Shown here piece after piece: positions 16,093 through 35,279 of a stretch of 60,922 bases of DNA; the stretch's first letter is position 1; each line of letters starts with the position of its first letter. Where the stretch lies: assembly GCA_021769885.1 (NCBI GenBank), contig JAETSA010000011.1:1-60922 (forward strand). The letters are read 5' to 3'. Below the pieces are notes generated by a model. That model did no database searches. It was not told where the DNA came from and saw nothing but the letters and a program-made list of their open reading frames with translations. A program made the translations under genes and the position numbers. This stretch comes from Bacillota bacterium. Its GTDB lineage: Bacteria; Bacillota; Clostridia; Oscillospirales; Acutalibacteraceae.

Positions 16093-16145
16093 AACAGAAT
16101 CAAAAATATATACATCGGATTCGATGCAGAAGGGTGAGGTTGGTT

Positions 16146-17741
16146 ATGGCAGTCAGAAAAACAGATTTGCCGCGCGCAGCGGCACCGGAAGATGTCGGCG
16201 TTTACGCAGATGTCGTCGAGCAGCTTATCGAGTATATGCAGCAGGAGGAATTGGAGTTCCACAGCTTAATGGTGCTTCGCCACGGCAAAGTGGCGGTGGA
16301 ATGGTATAACGAGCCGTTTGACGCACACACAAAGCACACAATGTACTCTGTCAGCAAAAGTTTTACCTCTACGGCAGTGGGGTTTGCCGTCAGCGAGGGA
16401 CTGCTGTCGTTAGACGATGTGGTTACGGACTTTTTCCCGGACTACCCGCCGAAAACGCCGAATCCGTATTTTGAAAAAATGACCGTGCGTACGCTCATCA
16501 CAATGACCTCGGGCAAACAGACCGATATGATGGCGGATAAGGGCAAAATCGACTGGATTGCCGATTTCATCAATTCCCCGTGGGTGTTTGAGCCGGGCAC
16601 GCAGTTTTTATATGTCAATGAAAATATCTATATGCTCTGTGCAATCTTGCACCGCGTAACGGGGATGAGCGTGATTGAGTATTTAACGCCGCGCCTGTTT
16701 GAGCCGCTCGGCATTGAAGTGCCGTTTTGGGAAACCGATTCAAACGGGGTAGAGGCAGGCGGCTGGGGCTTGTACATCACTACAGAGGACCTTGCCAAGG
16801 TTGCCGATTGCTATCTGCACGGCGGCAAATCCCGCGGCAAACAGATTTTGCCCGCCGAATGGGTTGGGGAAGCCACGAAAAACCAGCTCGGCGAAATCAA
16901 ACAGCCGAGCGATGATCCCGATGCAAACAGCGGCTACGGGTATTGCTTCTGGATGAATGCCGCGATACCCAATTCTTACAGAATGGACGGTATGTTCTCT
17001 CAGTTTGCCATCAATCTGCCGGATTATGATGCGTCTATCATTACCACGGCGGCGATTCCCGTAGAGTCGCAGGCGAGAGAAGCTCTGTGGCGGTTTTTCC
17101 CGAAGGCGTTTATCAACGAAGGGGAGGAGAAAAAGCCGACAAAATTGGACACGGCACTGCTTGCACGTCCCGCTGTTTCGCCGCGTTCCCTGACCGAAAA
17201 GAAAATCGAGGGCAGAACCATCAAGGTGCGCAAAAAGATTCTTTTAAATCTCATTGGTTTCCCTGTTAGTATGCTGCCGTTGGCAGTCACCTTTATGATG
17301 TCCGACCGCGCGGGCAATATTGACAATATCCGCTTCCGTTTCAAAGAGCACGAATGCTCCATCACGTGGGACGAAGGGGACGAGAACAACACCGTCGCCT
17401 GCGGTATGGACGGTCATTACCGCTACGGCACGATGACCTTGGGAAAAATCACATTTAAGGTGTGCGCCAATGCCGAGTGGGTGGATGACATCAATCTCCG
17501 TCTGTACATACGTCCTGTGGAAACCATCGGCAGACGCGATTTGAATTTCCTGTTCCGCCGTAATGACCGCGTCACGATTACGCCGTCCTCTACGCCGTCG
17601 GTCTACAAAATCGCCGAATCCCTGACCGTCAGCATCGGTGAGGTCATAAAGAACCCGATTATTGCCAAAGCCGGGCAGTTCTTAATGCGTTTTGCCCCCG
17701 CCGCCGCAGAACCGAAGCATTACGGCAAGTTTATTGACTGA
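16146..17741 (+). CDS. Beta-lactamase-fold serine hydrolase with extra C-terminal domain
   Basis: A 531-residue protein. The N-terminal 340 residues form a class C beta-lactamase/DD-peptidase-like domain with SxxK (SVSK, Ser68-Lys71) and YxN (YVN, 156-158). No signal peptide is apparent, so a cytoplasmic esterase or peptidase is more likely than a secreted beta-lactamase. Residues from about 370 on form an unfamiliar domain that begins with a hydrophobic stretch (LLNLIGFPVSMLPLAVTF) and continues beta-rich. ATG at 16146 is used with GGTGAGG upstream; an in-frame GTG lies 12 bases earlier. It is transcribed alone, next to the SCP2/transketolase locus on the other strand. Confidence 0.85.
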   Translation: MAVRKTDLPRAAAPEDVGVYADVVEQLIEYMQQEELEFHSLMVLRHGKVAVEWYNEPFDAHTKHTMYSVSKSFTSTAVGFAVSEGLLSLDDVVTDFFPDYPPKTPNPYFEKMTVRTLITMTSGKQTDMMADKGKIDWIADFINSPWVFEPGTQFLYVNENIYMLCAILHRVTGMSVIEYLTPRLFEPLGIEVPFWETDSNGVEAGGWGLYITTEDLAKVADCYLHGGKSRGKQILPAEWVGEATKNQLGEIKQPSDDPDANSGYGYCFWMNAAIPNSYRMDGMFSQFAINLPDYDASIITTAAIPVESQAREALWRFFPKAFINEGEEKKPTKLDTALLARPAVSPRSLTEKKIEGRTIKVRKKILLNLIGFPVSMLPLAVTFMMSDRAGNIDNIRFRFKEHECSITWDEGDENNTVACGMDGHYRYGTMTLGKITFKVCANAEWVDDINLRLYIRPVETIGRRDLNFLFRRNDRVTITPSSTPSVYKIAESLTVSIGEVIKNPIIAKAGQFLMRFAPAAAEPKHYGKFID

Positions 17742-18139: not shown

Positions 18140-18955
18140 TTATTTTGCCAATGCGGCGACCTCGAGCATATAGGTACCGATTTGTCCGCCAAATTCGGGT
18201 GCACCGTCCATAATCAGCTTGCCTTTTTTCACGGACTCCAACATATCGTCTGTGCCGAGGAGAATGCCCAATGCGCTGTCCAAGCTGTCAAAACGCAGGG
18301 TGAAAAACGGCATGGCGCGTTTGTACTCGCCGCGTCCCGCACGGGATTTCCCCGCCTTAATGCGCAGATACGCCGAAATCTGCGGATAGCCGTTAACTGC
18401 CCACGCGTACACGCGGTCGGGGCTTTTGCTCGTCCAGTCGTGGATATCTTCGTGTCCCATTTTGTTGAGCTGGCTGATGCCGCCCGACAAAAGATAGAAG
18501 AAGCATTTGACCATCAGCTCTTTGGTTGCTTCATCCTTCGGTGCTTCGGTTGCACCCAACAGAGAGGACATCTTTAAAAGCGTCATCAAAAATGCTTTAA
18601 ATGCACCGAAGTTCTTGAGTACACCGCGCATTTTCGGCAATGTGGCAGGGCTCATTTTGCCTTTGAAAAAGGCGTTCATCGCCTCCACGCTCTTAAACTC
18701 CAGCTCCACGTGGGGATTCGGGTCAACGCGGTTCAGGTGCACCAGCCATTCGTCACCGTTGACGACATAGTGCATACCGACCTTGCCGCCCTCTGCATCG
18801 GGGTCAAGTGCCGTGACCTGAATAATCGCGTGGACGTGCGCAAACTGCTTTTTTAAAGACGGCACGTCTGTTGCAATGACCTTGACAAGCGGCAGTGCGG
18901 CGTTGAAGAAAATTTTATTGGAATATAATTCTTCTTTTGTGTGCAAAATTTTCAC
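18140..18955 (-). CDS. Double SCP2-like protein (paralogue of the gene at 22709)
   Basis: A 271-residue soluble protein without signal or membrane segments. It appears to hold two alpha/beta units resembling SCP2-like lipid-binding domains, residues about 30-110 (pattern VELEFKSVEAMNAFFKGK) and about 180-270 (AWAVNGYPQISAYLRI, GKLIMDGAPEFG), joined by a helical linker. The whole architecture parallels the protein at 22709-23470, so the two are probably paralogues. The start is uncertain: GTG at 18955 sits very close to AAAGGAG, while TTG at 18946 has better spacing. It is separated from the transketolase genes by about 530 bases of repeats and hairpins. No enzyme motif is seen; ligand binding is an inference. 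Confidence 0.7.
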   Translation of the reverse strand: MKILHTKEELYSNKIFFNAALPLVKVIATDVPSLKKQFAHVHAIIQVTALDPDAEGGKVGMHYVVNGDEWLVHLNRVDPNPHVELEFKSVEAMNAFFKGKMSPATLPKMRGVLKNFGAFKAFLMTLLKMSSLLGATEAPKDEATKELMVKCFFYLLSGGISQLNKMGHEDIHDWTSKSPDRVYAWAVNGYPQISAYLRIKAGKSRAGRGEYKRAMPFFTLRFDSLDSALGILLGTDDMLESVKKGKLIMDGAPEFGGQIGTYMLEVAALAK

Positions 18956-19074
18956 ACTCCTTTAAAAGGAATTTTATCAAAAGGTAAATCAACTGTTGAG
19001 GAATAAATTACAGAGGATGTTGCGCAGAAGGGGGTACCGAGGTGAGTAGCCACAAAATGCACGCCAAAGGTTGC

Positions 19075-19250
19075 TGAAATTCCGCGGAACGACACAGGGG
19101 TTGTTCCCTACGCAAGCAATTTATTTCGAGATTGATTCTGCGGCGGGGGCAAGCCCCCGCCCTACGCTCAAAATGACAAAACCGCACGACCTGTAGGGGT
19201 CGCCGAGTCGGCGACCCGCGGGCGATTCGCGAATCGCCCCTACATTCCAT
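19075..19250. repeat. Interspersed hairpin-repeat array D
   Basis: Holds the GGAACGAC/GTTGTTCC dyad (about 19085-19110), a GGCGGGGGCAAGCCCCCGCC hairpin (about 19142-19162) and adjoining GTCGCCGAGTCGGCGAC and GGGCGATTC/GAATCGCCC hairpins (about 19199-19240). It fills part of the 527-base gap between the distal SCP2-like gene and the transketolase genes. Confidence 0.8.
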
Positions 19251-19264
19251 CCAAGCACAGAGTC

Positions 19265-19376
19265 AAATCTTTGATTGCAGTGCGTGCATCGCGCGCTTTC
19301 TTTTGCCCCGAAGTGTACAAGGGTACACGAGCGGGCGAAAAAAGCGTGCGAGGTGCGTGCGGCAACAAAAATTTTC
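19265..19376. repeat. Large imperfect inverted repeat 1
   Basis: About 45-base arms pair imperfectly around an apical GTGTACAAGGGTACAC (19313-19328). The left arm carries GCGCGCTTTCTTTTGCCCC and the right arm GGGCGAAAAAAGCGTGCG. It directly abuts a second hairpin of the same style. It could be a long RNA hairpin, a cruciform or a relic of a mobile repeat. Confidence 0.65.
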
Positions 19377-19484
19377 AAATCTTTTGTTCAGCGTGATGGA
19401 TAACGGATTAAAGTTCTCCCGTCGCGTACAAAGGTATGCAAGGGGAAAGTTAATTCGTTATCCGCACGATTGAACAAAGATTTT
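19377..19484. repeat. Large imperfect inverted repeat 2 abutting the transketolase stop codon
   Basis: Left arm about 19378-19420 and right arm about 19442-19484 pair over some 43 positions with few mismatches; shared blocks are TTGTTCA, GGATAACG, ATTAA and TTC-CCC. The apical part is GCGTACAAAGGTATGC, closely related to that of the preceding hairpin. The right arm ends within the stop codon of the transketolase C-terminal gene, so the structure forms at the mRNA 3' end. Confidence 0.75.
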
Positions 19485-20493
19485 AGACTTCGTCGTCCCA
19501 GTTGTCGTCAAGCTCAAAGTCCTTATGCATAACCTCGCGCACAGCTTCAATAATGCCGTTTGCATCGATGCCGACAATCGACATAATATCTTCGTGCAGA
19601 CCGATGGGCGCGAATTTGTCGGGGTGACCGAGCTTCTTGAATGCACAGCCCTTGCCCGATTCCACGACGACCTCTGCGACCGCAGAGCCAAGACCGCCGA
19701 GTGTGCTGTGATCCTCTACCGTGATGATACGGCGGGTGTCCTGTACCGCTTTGAGGATTGCCTCTTTGTCAATCGGTTTAATGGTGTGCATATTGAGAAC
19801 GCGGACTTTTAAGCCGTCGGCACTGTCTAAGAATTTTGCCGCTTCACGTGCCTGGAATACGCACGAGCCGCAGGCGATAACGGTGATATCCGTACCGGGA
19901 TGTACTTCCACCGCCTTGCCGACCTCGAAGCCGTAATCCTCGTTGTCATAGAGCACACGGTCAAAGCCGCGGTTGATGCGGATATAGTACGGGCCGAAGT
20001 TTTCATAGGCTGCGCGGACTGCGTTGGCGGTTTCGTACCCGTCCGCGGGGCAGATAACGGTCAGATTCGGCATAGAGCGCGCCACTGCCAAGTCCACAAT
20101 CGCGTGGTGCGTAGAGCCTGCCTGCCCGAAGGATGTGCCTGAATGCGTCGCAATGATTTTTGCGTTGACGTTCTGATAGCAGATGTCCGTGTGCAGCTGA
20201 TCCGCCGCGCGCAAAGATGCGAATACCGAGAAGGTGGACGCGAACGGCACGAGACCCGCTCTTGCCATACCTGCCGCGACGCCGAGCATATTCTGCTCTG
20301 CAATACCGACGTTAAACACGCGGTCGGGGCAGGCGTTTGTGAAGTCCTGCAATTTGGTCGAGGTGGCAAGGTCAGCGGTGACCGCCACAATCTCTTTATG
20401 TTCTTTGGCAAGGTCAGCAAGGGTCTTGCCGTAGATTTCCGAGGTGGAAAGCTCAGGGGTTTCAATTACGTTATAAACAAATCCTCCGGCCAT
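19483..20493 (-). CDS. Transketolase, C-terminal subunit (split type)
   Basis: A 336-residue protein covering the pyrimidine-binding and C-terminal domains of a transketolase. The catalytic glutamate lies in FNVGIAEQNMLGVAAGMA, followed by FASTFSVFASLRAADQ and HSGTSFGQAGSTHH. It needs the partner at 20493-21371 to form the thiamine diphosphate active site. Start and stop overlap with the N-subunit gene as TAATG, giving coupled translation. Split transketolases occur in the non-oxidative pentose phosphate route and in specialised pathways such as sulfo-TK or aminosugar/AHBA supply. The aminotransferase and SCP2-like neighbours favour a specialised role, but this is inference. Confidence 0.9.
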   Translation of the reverse strand: MAGGFVYNVIETPELSTSEIYGKTLADLAKEHKEIVAVTADLATSTKLQDFTNACPDRVFNVGIAEQNMLGVAAGMARAGLVPFASTFSVFASLRAADQLHTDICYQNVNAKIIATHSGTSFGQAGSTHHAIVDLAVARSMPNLTVICPADGYETANAVRAAYENFGPYYIRINRGFDRVLYDNEDYGFEVGKAVEVHPGTDITVIACGSCVFQAREAAKFLDSADGLKVRVLNMHTIKPIDKEAILKAVQDTRRIITVEDHSTLGGLGSAVAEVVVESGKGCAFKKLGHPDKFAPIGLHEDIMSIVGIDANGIIEAVREVMHKDFELDDNWDDEV

Positions 20494-21371
20494 TATTCAA
20501 ACTCCTTTCCGCAGCGTGCAATGCGTTCTGCACTGTAATCGTTGAGGTCTTGGGAGGCGGTTTTCGCCATATCCTCGTCGATTGCGCCGTAGTGCCACTT
20601 GTAGTTGCCTGCCGTCAGCTTGATGCCGACGCCCTTGACGGTATCTGCGACAATTACGGTCGGTTTGTCGGTGCAGGCGTGTGCCGCATCAATTGCCTTA
20701 CACAGCTCTACGATGTTATTGCCGTCGCAGACGATGGTGTTGAAGCCGAACGCGGTGAATTTGTCCGCCAGCGGCTCTAATTTCATAACATCCTCGGTGT
20801 TGCCGTCAATCATACAGTGGTTGCGGTCCACAATCGTGATGCAGTTTGTCAGGTTGTAGTGGTGAATGGTCATCAGGCCTTCCCAGTTGGAGCCTTCGTC
20901 CAGCTCGCCGTCGCCTGTTACAACATAGGTGGTGTAATCCTTGCCGAGTACGCGCGCCGCGATGGCAGTGCCTGCCGCAATCGGAATGCCGTGGCCGAGA
21001 GAGCCTGTGGAAGCATCCACACCCACAACCTTGTTGGAATCCAAATGGATACCCATTTTGGAGTTGGTCAGGTTAAAGGTCTTGAGCTGTTCGGGGTCGT
21101 TCCAGCCGTAGTCGCATAGCACGGGCGCATAGGCGATGCCTGCGTGACCCTTGCTGAGGATGAAACGGTCACGATCCGCCCACTTCGGGTCTTCTTTTTT
21201 GAGATTCAGGTATCTGTGGTACAAAACGGTCAGAATGTCCATCACGCTCATACCGCCGCCGATGTGCCCGCTGCCTGCCCAAACCGTGGTTTGTAAGCAG
21301 AGGTGGCGCAGGTCGTTGGCTTTCTTTTCAAGCGCCAGCCATTCTTCCTTGGTTAAAGGTGCTCTTTGCAT
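20493..21371 (-). CDS. Transketolase, N-terminal (TPP-binding) subunit (split type)
   Basis: A 292-residue TPP-binding domain. It contains GSGHIGGGMSVMDIL near the N-terminus, LSKGHAGIAYAPVL, the TPP motif beginning GDGELDEGSNWEG and ending NLTN, and a late WHYGA. It pairs with the C-terminal subunit encoded immediately downstream to transfer two-carbon ketol units between sugar phosphates or related aldehydes. GGGAGGA precedes the ATG. It lies 50 bases after the aminotransferase gene in the same orientation. Confidence 0.92.
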   Translation of the reverse strand: MQRAPLTKEEWLALEKKANDLRHLCLQTTVWAGSGHIGGGMSVMDILTVLYHRYLNLKKEDPKWADRDRFILSKGHAGIAYAPVLCDYGWNDPEQLKTFNLTNSKMGIHLDSNKVVGVDASTGSLGHGIPIAAGTAIAARVLGKDYTTYVVTGDGELDEGSNWEGLMTIHHYNLTNCITIVDRNHCMIDGNTEDVMKLEPLADKFTAFGFNTIVCDGNNIVELCKAIDAAHACTDKPTVIVADTVKGVGIKLTAGNYKWHYGAIDEDMAKTASQDLNDYSAERIARCGKEFE

Positions 21372-21421
21372 AGTGTCCTCCCTGTTATATACATATTGTT
21401 ACAGCAAAACCCTGCTGAAGG

Positions 21422-22696
21422 TTAGCCCTTGATTTCGGGATGGCGTTTCGCCACGACCGAGAATGCATCCTCCGCAATTTCGATTGCTTTTTTGATATCC
21501 TCATCCGTCACCGCTGCATTCATAAAGTGATTGTGGTGCGACGCCAAGAACAGGCCGCGGCTGACACATTCGGAAATCCATTCCTGATGCAGCATCAGGC
21601 TGTCATCGTTGGCAATGCGCAGATAGAACAGCGCGGGCTCGCCTGAAACCACCAAATCAAAGCCGTGTTCCTTACCTGCCGCAACAAAGCCTTCGGTCAG
21701 CTTTGTGCCCATTTCGCGGAACATCTTCGGGGTGTCGAGTTTTTTCATTTTGTTGATGCACGCAATCGACGCCGCGAACGGGACAGCGCTCATCCAGTAA
21801 GAGCCTGTGTAGGTGATGCCCGAAACGGTGGCTTTCATATGCGCACCGCCGCAGAGTGCGGACATATTGTAGCCGTTGGCAAGTGCCTTGCAGAAGCAGA
21901 TGAGGTCTGCCTTGATGCCGTAATAGTGGTCGGAGCCCTGTAAATCCAAACGGAAGCCTGTGCGCACGTCGTCGAAAATCAGTACCATACCTTTTTCGTC
22001 GCAGAATTTGCGCACGGCCTGCCAATATTCCTTGGAAGCGACTTCGTTATCCTTGAAGTTGCCGTGGTCATACGGCTGGGCAATTAAGCCCGCCACATCG
22101 CCGTCACAGGCGTTGTAGGCATCTTCCAGCGCTTTCAGATTGAACCACGGCACAACCACGTTGTTTGCGACCTCTTCGGGCATAATGCCGGGGTAGTCGA
22201 TTTTCTGTGCCCACTGGAAATCGCCGTGATAGAAGCCCTTTAAGAAGAACATTTTCTTTTTGTGCGTGTGCGCACGTGCCGCCATAACGGCGAGCGTGGT
22301 GGTGTCCGAGCCGTTTTTGGCAAAGAATGCCCAATCAGCGGAAGCCACGGTATCCACAAGGTTTTCGGCACATTCCACCATCACCTTAGAGGGGGAGGTG
22401 GTGCAGTTGCCGAGCTTTAACTGTTTGAGAGCCGCCGCATCTACGTCGGGGTCGTTATAGCCCAAAACATTCGGACCGTAGGCGCACATAAAGTCAATGT
22501 ACTTATTGCCGTCTACGTCCCAAAAATAGGTGCCCTGGGCTTTCTCCGAATAGAAAGGCCATTTTGAAACGGGAACCCAAAGCCCCTCGGCAGGGCCTAA
22601 GTGCCCGTAGATGCCCGAGGGAATTACTTTAATGGCACGGTTAAAATATTCGTGGCTTTTGTCGTGTTTGTATTCCGGAAATTTACTCATATGCAC
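21422..22696 (-). CDS. Class III PLP aminotransferase, glutamate-1-semialdehyde aminomutase-like
   Basis: A 424-residue fold-type I PLP enzyme. Visible signatures are IPSGIYGHLGPAEG and YFWDVDGNKYIDF near the N-terminus, AKNGSDTTTLAVMAARAHT, the PLP-contacting LIFDDVRTGFRL, and FCKALANGYNMSALCGG with the Schiff-base lysine. It resembles GSA aminomutases and sugar- or ketone-acting class III transaminases rather than acetylornithine enzymes. No hemL-type heme pathway neighbours are present. The start is GTG at 22696, 5 bases after GGAGG, or ATG at 22690. It lies between an SCP2-like gene and a split transketolase; the substrate is unknown. Confidence 0.85.
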   Translation of the reverse strand: MHMSKFPEYKHDKSHEYFNRAIKVIPSGIYGHLGPAEGLWVPVSKWPFYSEKAQGTYFWDVDGNKYIDFMCAYGPNVLGYNDPDVDAAALKQLKLGNCTTSPSKVMVECAENLVDTVASADWAFFAKNGSDTTTLAVMAARAHTHKKKMFFLKGFYHGDFQWAQKIDYPGIMPEEVANNVVVPWFNLKALEDAYNACDGDVAGLIAQPYDHGNFKDNEVASKEYWQAVRKFCDEKGMVLIFDDVRTGFRLDLQGSDHYYGIKADLICFCKALANGYNMSALCGGAHMKATVSGITYTGSYWMSAVPFAASIACINKMKKLDTPKMFREMGTKLTEGFVAAGKEHGFDLVVSGEPALFYLRIANDDSLMLHQEWISECVSRGLFLASHHNHFMNAAVTDEDIKKAIEIAEDAFSVVAKRHPEIKG

Positions 22697-22708
22697 TGAA
22701 TCCTCCCA

Positions 22709-23470
22709 TTACGCTAAGTACAGCGCGACTCTGTCGAGCAGTCTGTTCATATTATCGACCATAGAAAGCATACCGCGAATCTCGACTGTGCCAAGGCCTA
22801 TACACTCGAGCGCATTCACCTTGCCGTTAAACAAATCGTTTGCCAGCTGCAAATTGTCAAACTGCATAATGGCACGCGGGTTTTCGGCAGGCTTTTTCAA
22901 TGTAATCAAGTGATTGTCTTTGACACGCAGTGTTGCCGCAGGACCGTTTTTGATTGCGAAAGAGATGTCGCCGTCCATCATATAGGACGCGCTTGCCTGC
23001 CCGATTTTATCCTGATTGCCGATTTGTGCGAGTGCGACGGAGATGGTGTAGAACGTCATTACGGTAGACAACTCAAAGAACGCAGGGTCTTTCAGTGCTT
23101 CTTCGGTCGGACGCATCAATTCGGTCAGGCGGTCAGTCAGTGCCGTAAAGGTCTTTAACAAGAACCCAATCTTTGAAAAGCCTTTTACGGGGATGGGTGT
23201 TACGACGCCGTCGATGATGCCGTTGAATTTTTCACAGGACGCGACGGGAATCAGAATGTCACACGGTTTTTTGCCGTCTTCCATACGGCAGCCGTGCGAA
23301 GTGAAGCGGATGGTTGCCGCAGGGCCGCCTTTCACGTCAAAGCAGACCGTCACGGGCTTTTTCAGCTCCCACAGGATTTCTTTAGCCTTGCTATCGAGCT
23401 CGCAGAGGTTTTCGAGTGTCCCCAAAACCGCATAGAGATTGATATAGGCGAGTGTTCTTGCATCAGTCAA
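22709..23470 (-). CDS. Double SCP2-like protein (paralogue of the gene at 18140)
   Basis: A 253-residue soluble protein made of two similar halves. The N-half holds VTVCFDVKGGPAATIRF and EKFNGIIDG; the C-half holds ISFAIKNGPAATLRV and LANDLFNGKV. Both match the strand pattern and ligand-cavity layout of SCP2-like domains, joined by a helical segment. SCP2 folds bind lipids or other hydrophobic ligands. The start is TTG at 23470, 7 bases after GGGAGG; upstream frame has no better site. It is the first gene of the operon leading to the aminotransferase and split transketolase. Function is unassigned. Confidence 0.72.
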   Translation of the reverse strand: MTDARTLAYINLYAVLGTLENLCELDSKAKEILWELKKPVTVCFDVKGGPAATIRFTSHGCRMEDGKKPCDILIPVASCEKFNGIIDGVVTPIPVKGFSKIGFLLKTFTALTDRLTELMRPTEEALKDPAFFELSTVMTFYTISVALAQIGNQDKIGQASASYMMDGDISFAIKNGPAATLRVKDNHLITLKKPAENPRAIMQFDNLQLANDLFNGKVNALECIGLGTVEIRGMLSMVDNMNRLLDRVALYLA

Positions 23471-23507
23471 TGTAATTCCTCCCGTTTGACAATTATATAA
23501 CAAGATA

Positions 23508-23536
23508 ATCATACCAAATTTTCAAGGCAAAGTCAA
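23508..23536 (-). promoter_or_regulatory. Promoter of the SCP2-like/aminotransferase/transketolase operon
   Basis: Minus-strand TTGACT (23531-23536), a 17-base spacer and TATGAT (23508-23513), 38 bases upstream of the TTG start. It is close to sigma-A consensus, so the operon is likely well expressed. Confidence 0.8.
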
Positions 23537-32480: not shown

Positions 32481-32696
32481 ATGATGGATATTATTAAAGT
32501 TTTCGGTGATAACTTGAAAAAATACCGTACCGCTTTAGGTATATCGCAAGAAGGATTTGCCGATAAATGCGGTATGCACCGCACATATATAAGCGCTATC
32601 GAATGTTATCGCAGAAGCATTTCGCTTGAAAATATTCAGCGAATAGCAGATGCACTGGAAATTGAAACATACAAGTTATTTTTGGAGGAAAAGTAA
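32481..32696 (+). CDS. Small XRE-type HTH regulator, probable restriction-modification controller
   Basis: A 71-residue single-domain helix-turn-helix protein (ISQEGFADKCGMHRTYISAIE). Size and placement immediately ahead of a restriction endonuclease gene match controller (C) proteins that delay nuclease expression until methylation is complete. AGGAGG lies 8 bases before ATG ATG; either Met could be used. ATAC-TTATT-GTAT upstream (about 32419) is a possible operator. Base composition is clearly AT-richer than the flanking chromosome. Confidence 0.85.
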   Translation: MMDIIKVFGDNLKKYRTALGISQEGFADKCGMHRTYISAIECYRRSISLENIQRIADALEIETYKLFLEEK

Positions 32697-32697
32697 A

Positions 32698-33306
32698 GTG
32701 GGAAGAGGAAAAACGAAAATTGAACTGTTTGAAGAATTGGCGGGAATAGATGAAAATGGCTGCAGCAGATGGGTATATGTGACAGAATTTGTCGGTAAAT
32801 ATCAAGGGTTACAACTGTTGAATGGAGCCGGTTGGTCTAGAGATGATGGAACTTTTGGTAAAAAATATCTTATTGAACGTGATAAATCCATTACGCCTGG
32901 CAATAAGACGGATGCTATCAGAACTGTAGGATTCAACAACGGTGACTATTCTCAACATATACGGGCAGACATTAAAAGAGAAATTCAAAAGCAACGCTGT
33001 GCAATACTTGGTACCTCTAATCCTGAAGTTGATCATAAAAACGGAATGAAAAATGAAGCTAGAGTTATGCGGAACGAGAATCAGCGGTTATCGGATTTTC
33101 AGCCGTTAAGCAAAGCGGCAAATGATGCAAAACGTCAGTATTGTAAAGAATGTATCAGAACAGGAATCAGGTTTGACGCTAAAAAACTCGGATATCCTAT
33201 GTCTTATTATAAAGGCGAAGCAAATCACAACCATGAAGAAAATGCCTGTGAAGGTTGCTATTGGTACGATCCAATGGAATTTAAGAGACACCTGAAGGAG
33301 AAGTGA
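32698..33306 (+). CDS. HNH restriction endonuclease, NlaIII/IceA-like
   Basis: A 202-residue protein whose body resembles the NlaIII/IceA1 restriction enzymes (CATG specificity), as recalled from family sequences: SRWVYVTEFVGKYQGLQL near residue 25, the HNH core EVDHKNGMKNEARVM near residue 112, then LSDFQPLSKAAND, CKECIRTGIRFDAKKLGYP and CEGCYWYDP, a zinc-knuckle-like Cys pattern. The start is GTG at 32698, with GGAGG inside the end of the controller gene, giving tight coupling. The CATG target is an inference; the nuclease class is more certain. Confidence 0.82.
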   Translation: MGRGKTKIELFEELAGIDENGCSRWVYVTEFVGKYQGLQLLNGAGWSRDDGTFGKKYLIERDKSITPGNKTDAIRTVGFNNGDYSQHIRADIKREIQKQRCAILGTSNPEVDHKNGMKNEARVMRNENQRLSDFQPLSKAANDAKRQYCKECIRTGIRFDAKKLGYPMSYYKGEANHNHEENACEGCYWYDPMEFKRHLKEK

Positions 33307-33458
33307 TATGAACACGCACGTTTTTATTGTATAAAAGTTTGGCTATATTTCAAGAAGAAAATTCAACGAATCTCGGTTTGATATTACAATTGATAGAAAG
33401 AATATATTGCATTTAAAGCCGGTAAAATGAGATTCATTTTCGAAAAATTTTGCAGATG

Positions 33459-33502
33459 TTTAAAAAGGTAAGGTAATCATATGGTTACCTTACCTTTTTA
33501 AA
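33459..33502. terminator. Bidirectional terminator inside the restriction-modification island
   Basis: Perfect 18-base arms TTTAAAAAGGTAAGGTAA (33459-33476) and 33485-33502, loop of 8. It ends both the nuclease gene and the convergent methyltransferase, and the right arm includes the methyltransferase stop codon. Confidence 0.88.
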
Positions 33503-34273
33503 TACAAAAATATATTCATGCTTAAAAATATAAAAATCGCTTGCTAAAGCACGATATCTCCATATACCTTGTTTGTTTGATTTCCCTTTCGTTTCCTCAA
33601 AATTTTTAACTAAAATCGCTTTCAGTAAAAAGCCCTTATCCAACATTAAATTCATGCAATAGAAACCCAACGGTATTATCTGGCTGTTCGCGTATTTATC
33701 ACCGATTACAATAGCACAATATCTGTTTTTTTCTAAAACACTTGTAGTATTGTCAACTGTTTTACCAAAAGATGAAAGGAAGTCCTCCACGCTTGTACAA
33801 TTTGATAAATCATCGGGATGGTCTGAAAATTTAACGATATCCCAATACGGCGGATGCATAATAACAAACTGTACTTTATCAATACCGACAGTATTTGTGA
33901 TCTCATGCATATTGCAGTTTTGGCTATTTGCAACAATCACTTTTGCTGTAGCTTTTTCATTTTTTTCAGTTACAATTCTATCATAAGCCTCTTTGGCAAC
34001 ATCATGCTGCAGTTCAATTCCAATAGAGTTTCGCCCCATTCTTTGCGCTTCAATCAATGATGTTCCGCTGCCCATAAAAGGGTCTAAAATCCAATCTCCC
34101 TTTTTCGTATATCTTGAAAATAATTGATATGGTATCTGCGGGACAAAATTCCCATGATAATGTCCGCTGTGTGCGCCGCTGTTGTCTCGCTTTTCAATCA
34201 TCCATAACGAATCCGTTTTTATATCATTGTATTCTTTCCATTTCGCCATGTCTAAATCATTGTATTTAGCCAT
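33485..34273 (-). CDS. DNA methyltransferase (N4-cytosine or N6-adenine type)
   Basis: A 262-residue SAM-dependent amino-methyltransferase. The SAM-binding DPFMGSGTSLIEAQRMG lies at about residue 63, preceded by the motif X region, and catalytic HPPYWD lies near residue 138. The order is therefore X-I-IV rather than the IV-X-I order common in this group. Whether it methylates N4-C or N6-A cannot be decided. It is one base after the larger methyltransferase on the minus strand. A second methyltransferase beside an NlaIII-like pair is not expected for a simple CATG system, so it may add another specificity. Confidence 0.88.
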   Translation of the reverse strand: MAKYNDLDMAKWKEYNDIKTDSLWMIEKRDNSGAHSGHYHGNFVPQIPYQLFSRYTKKGDWILDPFMGSGTSLIEAQRMGRNSIGIELQHDVAKEAYDRIVTEKNEKATAKVIVANSQNCNMHEITNTVGIDKVQFVIMHPPYWDIVKFSDHPDDLSNCTSVEDFLSSFGKTVDNTTSVLEKNRYCAIVIGDKYANSQIIPLGFYCMNLMLDKGFLLKAILVKNFEETKGKSNKQGIWRYRALASDFYIFKHEYIFVFKKVR

Positions 34274-34274
34274 A

Positions 34275-35279
34275 CTATTCCTCTTTAATTAAGCAATGCA
34301 AATACTCTGTGGTTTCATTTTTGCCGGTATTTCTATTTTCGTCTTTGTCAGCTTTAAAACGCTTATGGGTTCGGGTAAAGCAACTGTAAGTCCCATACTT
34401 AGACATGATATCTTTGATGGTATCAACACGCATTAATCCCTCGTTATTGTAACTTAAAAAGATGTATTTAAAATTTGCGTTCGCGATAAGGCTTTCAAAT
34501 TCACTGCATAAAGTCTTCTTGGAACAGTATTTACTTTTTTGCACATCATAATTTCTCAGCCCCGTTTTCCCTTTGAGTTCGGGATCATCATAACGTGCGA
34601 TGGTTTCCAATACATGATAATTGGTGCAATATTGTCTTGCATTGTATGGCGGATCTAAATACAAAATGTCTCCGTGCACTTTTTTGATGAGCGCATTGAC
34701 ATCTTCATTGTATACTGTACCTTTTACACCTTCTATATAAGGCAATAATTCTAATACAAAATTTTTTTTGGCGGATTGCTTTATGTGCTTCAAAAAAGCC
34801 CCATATACGGACGCGGTATTCGCATATTTATCAATGGAATTAATCAGACTTGCCAAAAAATAGAAATATGTTTCATCTGAAATTTCTCCGCTGTGATGTA
34901 GCCTTTCCAATTCTGTTCGAATTGCATCGCACTTTTTTCCGTTTCCGTCGGTAAAATAATTTCGCCCGCTTCCGGAACCGGCACAATAATTCTTATATAT
35001 AAAACCATCTATACCGGTTAGGTGATTCAAATAATTTAATAAGTCTAGATTTGCTTCTGTTTGATTCTCAATATAGTATTTATTTAGCACATAACTATAA
35101 TACTGAATATCATTTGCTATTACTTTACAACCTTGCTTTCTATAGCTTGCACCAACAACTCCGGTACCTGCAAATAAATCTGCAAATACATAACTGTCAC
35201 CTTGCTTATAGCCTGTTATATCAGATATTTTTTCATGGATGAAATCCAACAGAGAATATTTTGAACCTATATAATTCAT
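34275..35279 (-). CDS. D12-class adenine-specific DNA methyltransferase, M.NlaIII-like
   Basis: A 334-residue Dam/D12-type N6-adenine methyltransferase beginning MNYIGSKYSLLDFI, which resembles the M.NlaIII/M.HpyI group by start and length. Motif I is ADLFAGTGVVGASYRKQG (about residue 30), and catalytic DPPYNARQYCTNYH is near residue 206. It should protect the host site recognised by the HNH nuclease at 32698. AAGGAG precedes the ATG. It is markedly AT-rich like the rest of the island. Confidence 0.88.
   Translation of the reverse strand: MNYIGSKYSLLDFIHEKISDITGYKQGDSYVFADLFAGTGVVGASYRKQGCKVIANDIQYYSYVLNKYYIENQTEANLDLLNYLNHLTGIDGFIYKNYCAGSGSGRNYFTDGNGKKCDAIRTELERLHHSGEISDETYFYFLASLINSIDKYANTASVYGAFLKHIKQSAKKNFVLELLPYIEGVKGTVYNEDVNALIKKVHGDILYLDPPYNARQYCTNYHVLETIARYDDPELKGKTGLRNYDVQKSKYCSKKTLCSEFESLIANANFKYIFLSYNNEGLMRVDTIKDIMSKYGTYSCFTRTHKRFKADKDENRNTGKNETTEYLHCLIKEE

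What the first reader, a model, noticed from the sequence alone, without database searches (positions are those of the whole stretch)
18140..23536. Candidate new pathway: two double-SCP2-like proteins, a GSAM-like aminotransferase and a split transketolase
Four genes run from one near-consensus promoter (SCP2-like, class III aminotransferase, transketolase N, transketolase C), and a paralogue of the first protein sits at the downstream end on the same strand. Both SCP2-like proteins share an N-domain / helical linker / C-domain architecture with an internal duplication, and neither has a signal peptide or catalytic motif. Transketolase plus class III aminotransferase suggests making or rearranging an amino-sugar or aminoketone-like metabolite. 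SCP2-like folds suggest a hydrophobic ligand or carrier-like partner. I know of no named pathway with this combination; known split transketolases with specialised roles (sulfo-TK, AHBA supply) lack SCP2 partners.
Basis: partly seen in the sequence, partly recalled or inferred. Interest (0 to 1): 0.8.

Follow-up and report, generated by a model that had tools for sequence, protein, structure and literature searches.

The report
Lipid-carrier operon with altered transketolase
A five-gene operon of uncultured gut Clostridia pairs two lipid-carrier-like proteins with an altered transketolase and an aminotransferase, and may make or break long-chain amino alcohols resembling the backbone of sphingolipids by an undescribed route.

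Summary
Five minus-strand genes form one operon: SCPb, aminotransferase, TktN, TktC, SCPa. 68 of 80 related loci carry all five in this order; the other 12 lie at contig ends. A distant relative of the phylum keeps it too. Models show two tandem SCP2 folds in each SCP protein. The 'GSAM' is closest to FumI, the fumonisin aminopentol aminotransferase (354 bits against 196 for the best GSAM). The transketolase is a separate clade (100/100) beside a canonical one in the same genome. It keeps the catalytic residues tested, but the acceptor pair R91-D469 is N-A in every SCP2-linked sequence examined, and R358 is lost wherever the aminotransferase was found. D469A improves E. coli transketolase on propionaldehyde (PMC3657141). 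Best reading: SCP2 proteins present a hydrophobic 2-amino-1,3-diol; the aminotransferase makes the 1,3-dihydroxy-2-ketone; transketolase splits it into an aldehyde plus C2, or the reverse. A sphingoid-like substrate fits best but is inferred, and stereochemistry speaks against plain sphinganine. Nearest precedent: DesAB steroid desmolase. No function was shown experimentally.

The parts
23508..23536 (-). promoter-like site, TTGACT-17-TATGAT with TG before the -10
   Evidence: 10 of 12 matches; 7 sites found against 4.9 expected in shuffles, so weak
22709..23470 (-). SCPb, tandem SCP2-like protein, probable TTG start at 23470 (ORF finder: ATG 23512)
21422..22696 (-). class III aminotransferase nearest to FumI (aminopentol aminotransferase)
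20493..21371 (-). TktN, N-terminal subunit of a split transketolase, R91 replaced by N
19483..20493 (-). TktC, C-terminal subunit, GEDG replaced by GQAG (D469A), R358 replaced by S
18140..18955 (-). SCPa, tandem SCP2-like protein, GTG start

Best explanation
The operon encodes a short pathway that interconverts a hydrophobic 2-amino-1,3-diol of sphingoid-base type (R-CHOH-CHNH2-CH2OH) and a hydrophobic aldehyde (R-CHO). The two tandem SCP2 proteins bind the lipid and present it to the soluble enzymes (fold shown, role inferred). The FumI-like aminotransferase exchanges the C2 amine for a ketone (inferred). The product R-CHOH-CO-CH2OH has the form of a transketolase donor; the TktN/TktC enzyme moves its HOCH2-CO unit to or from thiamine diphosphate and releases or takes up R-CHO (inferred). 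With a C16 aldehyde the C18 partner would be a sphinganine-like base. Shown here: gene order and its conservation, folds, affinity to FumI, intact catalytic residues, and constant loss of sugar-acceptor residues. Ligand, reactions and direction are inferred. I lean to degradation or salvage, about 60:40, with the C2 unit entering the pentose phosphate pathway as has been proposed for DesAB.
For: Order SCPb-AT-TktN-TktC-SCPa in 68 of 80 loci, 12 others at contig ends, and in G145, G675, G816 and G895. AT nearest to FumI: 298 against 159 bits, 354 against 196 with a profile; 48 conserved positions shared with FumI only, 13 with one GSAM only. FumI acts on the C2 amine of hydrolysed fumonisin B1, a sphinganine-like compound (PMC9858248 passages). 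Transketolase: D469 is A in 78 of 78 and R91 is N in 72 of 72, with catalytic residues kept; same in 13 and 12 wider SCP2-linked rows; 25 of 25 other split TktC keep D469 and R358; one clade, 100/100. D469A and other D469 variants improve E. coli transketolase on propionaldehyde, and several accept linear aliphatic aldehydes (PMC3657141 passages). SCP2 folds. An aldehyde dehydrogenase nearest MdlD stands in the cluster of G052 and of G351. A zinc dehydrogenase replaces the AT in the sister architecture, as expected if the ketone can also come from an alcohol.
Against: No ligand or activity was tested. E. coli transketolase and its D469S and D469T variants make mainly 3S ketodiols, while D-erythro-sphinganine is 3R (recalled); a threo base or an altered selectivity would be needed. 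S385, H461 and R520, which contact phosphate or line the entrance, are kept. A canonical split transketolase that lacks this substitution also accepts phenylacetaldehyde and cyclohexanecarboxaldehyde (PMC7661550 passages), so hydrophobic acceptors do not require it. The window's genome has no aldehyde dehydrogenase of the MdlD type among its four Aldedh matches. No conserved source or sink of fatty aldehyde lies beside the operon.
Confidence: 0.48

Rival explanations
1. Steroid side-chain metabolism of DesAB type: the SCP2 proteins carry a steroid, the transketolase removes an HOCH2-CO side chain, and the aminotransferase (or, in the sister architecture, the zinc dehydrogenase) sets the state of C20.
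For: DesAB is a split transketolase thought to remove the C2 side chain of cortisol, in an operon with a zinc dehydrogenase (DesC, a 20-alpha-HSDH) and a sodium-dependent symporter also called Na+/melibiose transporter (PMC3735941 passages). The sister architecture is transketolase plus SCP2 protein plus zinc dehydrogenase. SCP2 folds bind sterols (recalled). Symporter-like genes that I assign by eye to the melibiose family lie in 11 of 80 loci.
Against: No steroid 20-amine substrate is known to me. The FumI affinity of the AT points to acyclic amines. The symporter-like genes stand at varying places and strands, and no background rate was measured. The zinc dehydrogenase of L095 is nearest scyllo-inosose and threonine dehydrogenase models, far below their cut-offs. 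An aldehyde dehydrogenase (G052, G351) is not expected when cleavage leaves a 17-ketone. DesA and DesB sequences could not be compared.
Confidence: 0.15
2. Polar amino-sugar or aminocyclitol synthesis, the first reader's product class: the transketolase builds a ketose that the aminotransferase aminates, and the SCP2 proteins serve a carrier or partner role.
For: Class III aminotransferases with sugar-type substrates are among the weaker relatives (C-6' aminotransferases 7lld and 7lm0, NeoN). The transketolase keeps S385, H461 and R520.
Against: Loss of R91 and D469 in all SCP2-linked sequences examined and of R358 with the AT; FumI is by far the best match; SCP2 folds suggest a hydrophobic ligand; no sugar or secondary-metabolite genes conserved around the operon.
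Confidence: 0.12
3. An ordinary second transketolase of the pentose phosphate pathway, with an AT and SCP2 proteins by chance beside it.
For: Catalytic residues are intact, as are S385, H461 and R520.
Against: A canonical split pair exists in the same genome (L002), and own, G184, G348, G351 and G385 each list two TktC matches. The gene order is strictly conserved. The unit is rare: 3 of 147 genomes of the order, 5 of 391 of the class, 5 of 398 of the phylum, own genome included. R91 and D469 are lost, and the clade has a long stem (0.92).
Confidence: 0.06

Closest known systems
DesAB steroid-17,20-desmolase operon desABCD (Clostridium scindens ATCC 35704; PMC3735941 passages)
   Same: Split transketolase in its own operon, for a hydrophobic substrate that carries an HOCH2-CO unit; a zinc dehydrogenase next to it in desABCD and in the sister architecture here; other transketolases elsewhere in the genome.
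   Different: The des operon as described holds no aminotransferase, and the words 'sterol carrier' and 'aminotransferase' do not occur in that paper's main text. Here the partners are an AT and two tandem SCP2 proteins, and des-type transporter and dehydrogenase are not in the window's operon. Sequence kinship to DesA/DesB was not tested.
FumI, aminopentol (hydrolysed fumonisin B1) aminotransferase, PDB 6hbs/6hbv
   Same: Best match of the AT, 38% identity; shared motifs such as YID(F/Y)MCAYGPN, KNGSD, DDVR, ANGY and TGS(Y/F)W.
   Different: Only 38% identical; FumI variants that detoxify fumonisin are reported at 61-74% to one another (PMC9858248); no transketolase partner of FumI is known to me (recalled).
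Split transketolase of Carboxydothermus hydrogenoformans, PDB 6yaj/6yak
   Same: Best structural relative of TktN and TktC (214.8 and 257.9 bits); same catalytic residues.
   Different: It keeps R91, D469 and R358, all replaced in the window pair; no SCP2 partner in the entries.
UbiJ, SCP2 protein of ubiquinone synthesis, PDB 6h6n-6h6p
   Same: SCP2 fold; best Foldseek hit of SCPb; a lipid-binding helper of biosynthetic enzymes (recalled).
   Different: The UbiJ chains hit are 114-126 residues, one SCP2 unit; SCPa and SCPb have two units with a helical linker, and no listed hit covers both (best TM by query 0.35).
Engineered E. coli transketolases with D469 changes
   Same: Same position altered; D469A itself was found to improve activity on propionaldehyde (PMC3657141 passages).
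   Different: The natural clade has also lost R91 and the neighbouring E468, and with the AT also R358, and keeps R520 and S385, which the engineered S385Y/D469T/R520Q variant changes (PMC5073344 passages).

Membership tests
Transketolase (superfamily) | thiamine-diphosphate site and catalytic residues (E411, H26, H66, H100, H261, H473, GDG motif, metal Asn) | tested here: met
   identical in 78 TktC and 72 TktN sequences; Pfam Transketolase_N, Transket_pyr and Transketolase_C above cut-off
Transketolase of the pentose phosphate pathway | sugar-acceptor residues R91, D469 and R358 | tested here: not met
   R91 to N in 72 of 72, D469 to A in 78 of 78, R358 to S/A/T/M in 78 of 78; kept in own canonical, C. 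hydrogenoformans and human sequences, and D469 and R358 in 25 of 25 further split TktC
DesAB steroid desmolase | sequence kinship to DesA and DesB | not tested
   DesA and DesB sequences were not obtained; no intermediate group between SCP2-linked and other TktC in 291 class genomes
DesAB steroid desmolase | operon with zinc 20-HSDH (desC) and symporter (desD) | tested here: not met
   not in the window's operon; a zinc dehydrogenase is present in the sister architecture only
DesAB steroid desmolase | cleaves cortisol side chain | not testable with these tools
   needs enzyme assay
FumI-type aminotransferase | class III fold type and closer to FumI than to GSAM | tested here: met
   354 against 196 bits; 38% against 29% identity
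FumI-type aminotransferase | deaminates hydrolysed fumonisin B1 or a sphingoid base | not testable with these tools
   needs enzyme assay
Glutamate-1-semialdehyde aminomutase | NCBIfam cut-offs of the GSAM models | tested here: not met
   201 bits against 398 (NF000818), 189 against 527 (TIGR00713), 195 against 486 (NF004856)
SCP2 sterol-carrier fold | SCP2 fold in each half | tested here: met
   confident models with two alpha/beta units and SCP2 chains as top Foldseek hits; the halves were not searched separately
SCP2 sterol-carrier fold | Pfam SCP2 match above its cut-off | tested here: inconclusive
   none for SCPa, 15.7 bits for SCPb; 29.2 bits for the SCPb of L142, above the cut-off of 21.3
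Classical bacterial sphingolipid pathway | serine palmitoyltransferase (alpha-oxoamine synthase) in the genome | tested here: not met
   best own match to TIGR01825 is 20 bits against a cut-off of 535; one model only, genome 97.6% complete

The most novel reading that the evidence does not exclude
A transketolase/aminotransferase route to or from sphingoid-type 2-amino-1,3-diols that does not use serine palmitoyltransferase, in anaerobic gut Clostridia: a fatty aldehyde and a sugar-derived C2 unit give a 1,3-dihydroxy-2-ketone, which is aminated at C2, with tandem SCP2 proteins as lipid chaperones. Nature would have made on its own the D469A acceptor-site change that engineers introduced into E. 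coli transketolase.
Probability: 0.28. Interest if true: 0.92.

Novelty: new variant of a known kind. Interest (0 to 1): 0.7.

Why it matters
It would be a second natural case, after DesAB, of a transketolase turned on lipids, and possibly a new way to make or break sphingolipid-like amino alcohols in the gut. It also offers biocatalysis a natural, conserved transketolase that carries an acceptor-site change previously reached by engineering, together with a matching aminotransferase and lipid-presenting partners. The operon is small and can be tested directly in E. coli.

Tried and rejected
Canonical pentose phosphate role: rejected because of the second, canonical pair, the residue changes and the patchy distribution. 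True GSAM: rejected on NCBIfam cut-offs and on FumI affinity. Amino-sugar synthesis: disfavoured by loss of R91 and D469. Conserved partners outside the operon: clustering of flanking ORFs (up to 10 kb each side, often less) gave only a secA-like cluster upstream in 24 loci (22 on the opposite strand; named by eye) as frequent and near; the next clusters were in 14 or fewer loci. Ceramidase: no match in the own genome, but the control genomes were silent too, so it says nothing. Intermediate, DesB-like transketolases: not seen in 291 class genomes; scores leave a gap between 599 bits and more (SCP2-linked) and 374 and less. Literature: searches found no paper, one yeast review and one Streptomyces paper, both judged from the listing only; (clostridial sphingolipid synthesis) gave ten papers, none of them on it by title and abstract start; one search gave six papers on transketolase with transaminase and aminodiols, listing only. 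The held library omits most subscription papers.
Full report
What is there. The window is contig C33 of a 2.32 Mb, 97.6% complete genome. The closest named relatives in the scan are Ruminococcaceae bacterium UBA7212 and Candidatus Fimenecus MAGs (SCPa 97% and 94% identical; Fimenecus stands in Clostridia). On the minus strand lie SCPb, an aminotransferase (AT), TktN, TktC and SCPa. SCPb probably starts at the TTG at 23470.

It is one operon of five genes. The genome-contig scan found 136 stretches that encode a relative of SCPa and kept the best 80. 68 of 80 hold all five genes, and 68 of 68 hold them in the same order; only genes on the strand of SCPa were counted. The median TktC-SCPa gap is 27 bp. 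Of the 12 others, 10 have 0-2 bases before their first gene, L062 has 137 and L013 has 507, so the missing genes would lie beyond the contig end; for L013 this assumes a long TktC-SCPa gap, as in the window (527 bp) and L014 (459 bp). A sister architecture in G351, G348, G184 and G385 has TktN-TktC-SCPa followed by a zinc MDR dehydrogenase and a MerR regulator, without AT or SCPb in the stretches held; the G385 contig ends just before TktN, and the rest of these genomes was not searched for the AT. G676 shows only TktN-TktC-SCPa in 18 kb.

SCP proteins. Models from 30-row alignments are confident (pLDDT 92.9 and 88.5): an SCP2-like unit, two long helices, a second SCP2-like unit. Foldseek lists SCP-2, AF1534, UbiJ and SdsA1-type alkylsulfatases, but no listed hit covers both units (best TM by query 0.35). 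SCPa and SCPb are distant paralogues.

Aminotransferase. Its best solved relative is 6hbs/6hbv, aminopentol aminotransferase, called FumIS in PMC9858248 (passages): 298 bits against 159 for the best GSAM, 354 against 196 with a profile. Identity is 38% to FumI and 29% to GSAM 3bs8. Of positions at least 95% conserved in 72 members (69 loci, window, G675, G895), 48 agree with FumI only, 13 with that GSAM only and 50 with both; one GSAM only was used. FumI acts on the C2 amine of hydrolysed fumonisin B1, and fumonisins resemble sphinganine.

Transketolase. Numbers are those of E. coli, carried over by alignment to the human enzyme. The roles of R91, D469, S385, R520, H461, H26, H261 and E468 are from passages of PMC5073344 and PMC3657141; those of R358, H66, H100, E411 and H473 are recalled. 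The sets were 78 TktC (75 loci, window, G145, G052; 2 partial of 77 loci dropped) and 72 TktN (71 loci, window; 4 partial of 75 dropped). All catalytic residues tested are kept. F434 is F in 75 and M in 3. D469 is A in 78 of 78, the E before it is Q in 77 and T in 1, R91 is N in 72 of 72, and R358 is A, S, T or M in 78 of 78; S385, H461 and R520 are kept. D469 bonds to R91 across subunits, so the pair was lost together. In the wider set (13 SCP2-linked TktC, 12 TktN) D469A and R91N hold without exception; R358 is lost in the 8 with an AT, G895 included, and in L087, whose AT is unknown, and kept in the 4 without a visible AT (G676, G351, G348, G184), three of which have S385T and F434M. All 25 non-SCP2 split TktC fetched from the class keep R358 and D469; R91 was compared with only three canonical TktN. 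The SCP2-linked set is one clade (100/100, stem 0.92) and scores 599 bits or more on its own profile against 374 or less for the rest. D469T and D469A improve E. coli transketolase on propionaldehyde, and several D469 variants accept linear aliphatic aldehydes (PMC3657141 passages). So the natural acceptor is probably an aldehyde without an alpha-hydroxyl. Two facts weaken this: three phosphate-site residues are kept, and the canonical C. hydrogenoformans enzyme accepts phenylacetaldehyde and cyclohexanecarboxaldehyde without such a change (PMC7661550 passages).

The cell has another transketolase. The own genome has four Transket_pyr matches: this one, a canonical split pair (L002) and two DXS-like proteins (named by eye). 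The unit is accessory and patchy: SCPa relatives in 3 of 147 genomes of the order, 5 of 391 of the class and 5 of 398 of the phylum, own genome included.

Mechanism. Deaminating a 2-amino-1,3-diol at C2 gives HOCH2-CO-CHOH-R, the form of a transketolase donor; cleavage gives R-CHO plus a C2 unit on thiamine diphosphate. With an alcohol dehydrogenase in place of the AT the same ketone could come from a triol, which would explain the sister architecture. An aldehyde dehydrogenase nearest the MdlD model (460 and 457 bits, below its cut-off of 550) follows SCPa in G052 and lies three genes downstream in G351, which favours the catabolic direction there. The window's genome has no such protein: its four Aldedh matches lie on three proteins that I read as MMSDH-like, AdhE-like and ProA-like. 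Hence a direction of only about 60:40.

Stereochemistry. E. coli transketolase and its D469S and D469T variants prefer 3S products; D469Y gives 3R; D469A is not listed there. D-erythro-sphinganine is 3R, fumonisin B1 2S,3S (recalled). A plain sphinganine substrate would need an altered selectivity; a threo base would not.

Comparison with what is known. Four searches of the held papers found no description of this gene set. I rate it a new variant of a known kind, a transketolase recruited to hydrophobic substrates, with a new set of partners.

Changes made when the report was checked: the secA count now gives its strands, the C. hydrogenoformans result against my reading was added, and confidence in the best explanation was set at 0.48 for that reason.

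Noticed in passing
window 16134-17741 (+): Beta-lactamase-fold serine hydrolase whose residues 11-323 match the 3-succinylated cholic acid synthase model at 236 bits, far below its cut-off of 800. A near-identical gene lies beside the operon in L009.
   Followed up: partly
window 18956-19482, 599, 49546: The 527-bp gap before SCPa holds TAGGGGCGATTCGCGAATCGCC-type sequence; a related 16-mer occurs 3 times in the window with up to 2 mismatches against 0.03 expected, so a dispersed intergenic repeat is likely.
   Followed up: partly
L087 1-2594: A contig filed as Bifidobacteriaceae carries TktN-TktC-SCPa at 60-70% identity: transfer between phyla, or a binning error.
   Followed up: no
L081, L082, L085, L140, L141, downstream of SCPa: A TetR-type regulator follows the operon in five loci; only that of L140 was checked with Pfam (50.4 bits).
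   Followed up: partly
L004 (G000:C11:49844-53317): A second DXS-like protein of 591 residues in the own genome whose motif reads YGMNDVTHLG where the other reads VGEDGVSHQG.
   Followed up: no
11 of 80 loci (for example L079 3927-5372, L086 4277-5569): Symporter genes that look by eye like the GPH (melibiose) family, the type named for DesD, lie in the flanks, at varying sides and strands; no background rate was measured.
   Followed up: partly
window 32650-35279: Two adjacent genes that look by eye like DNA methyltransferases (33485-34273, 34275-35279, minus strand) near a possible nuclease (32650-33306, plus strand), perhaps a restriction-modification locus.
   Followed up: no
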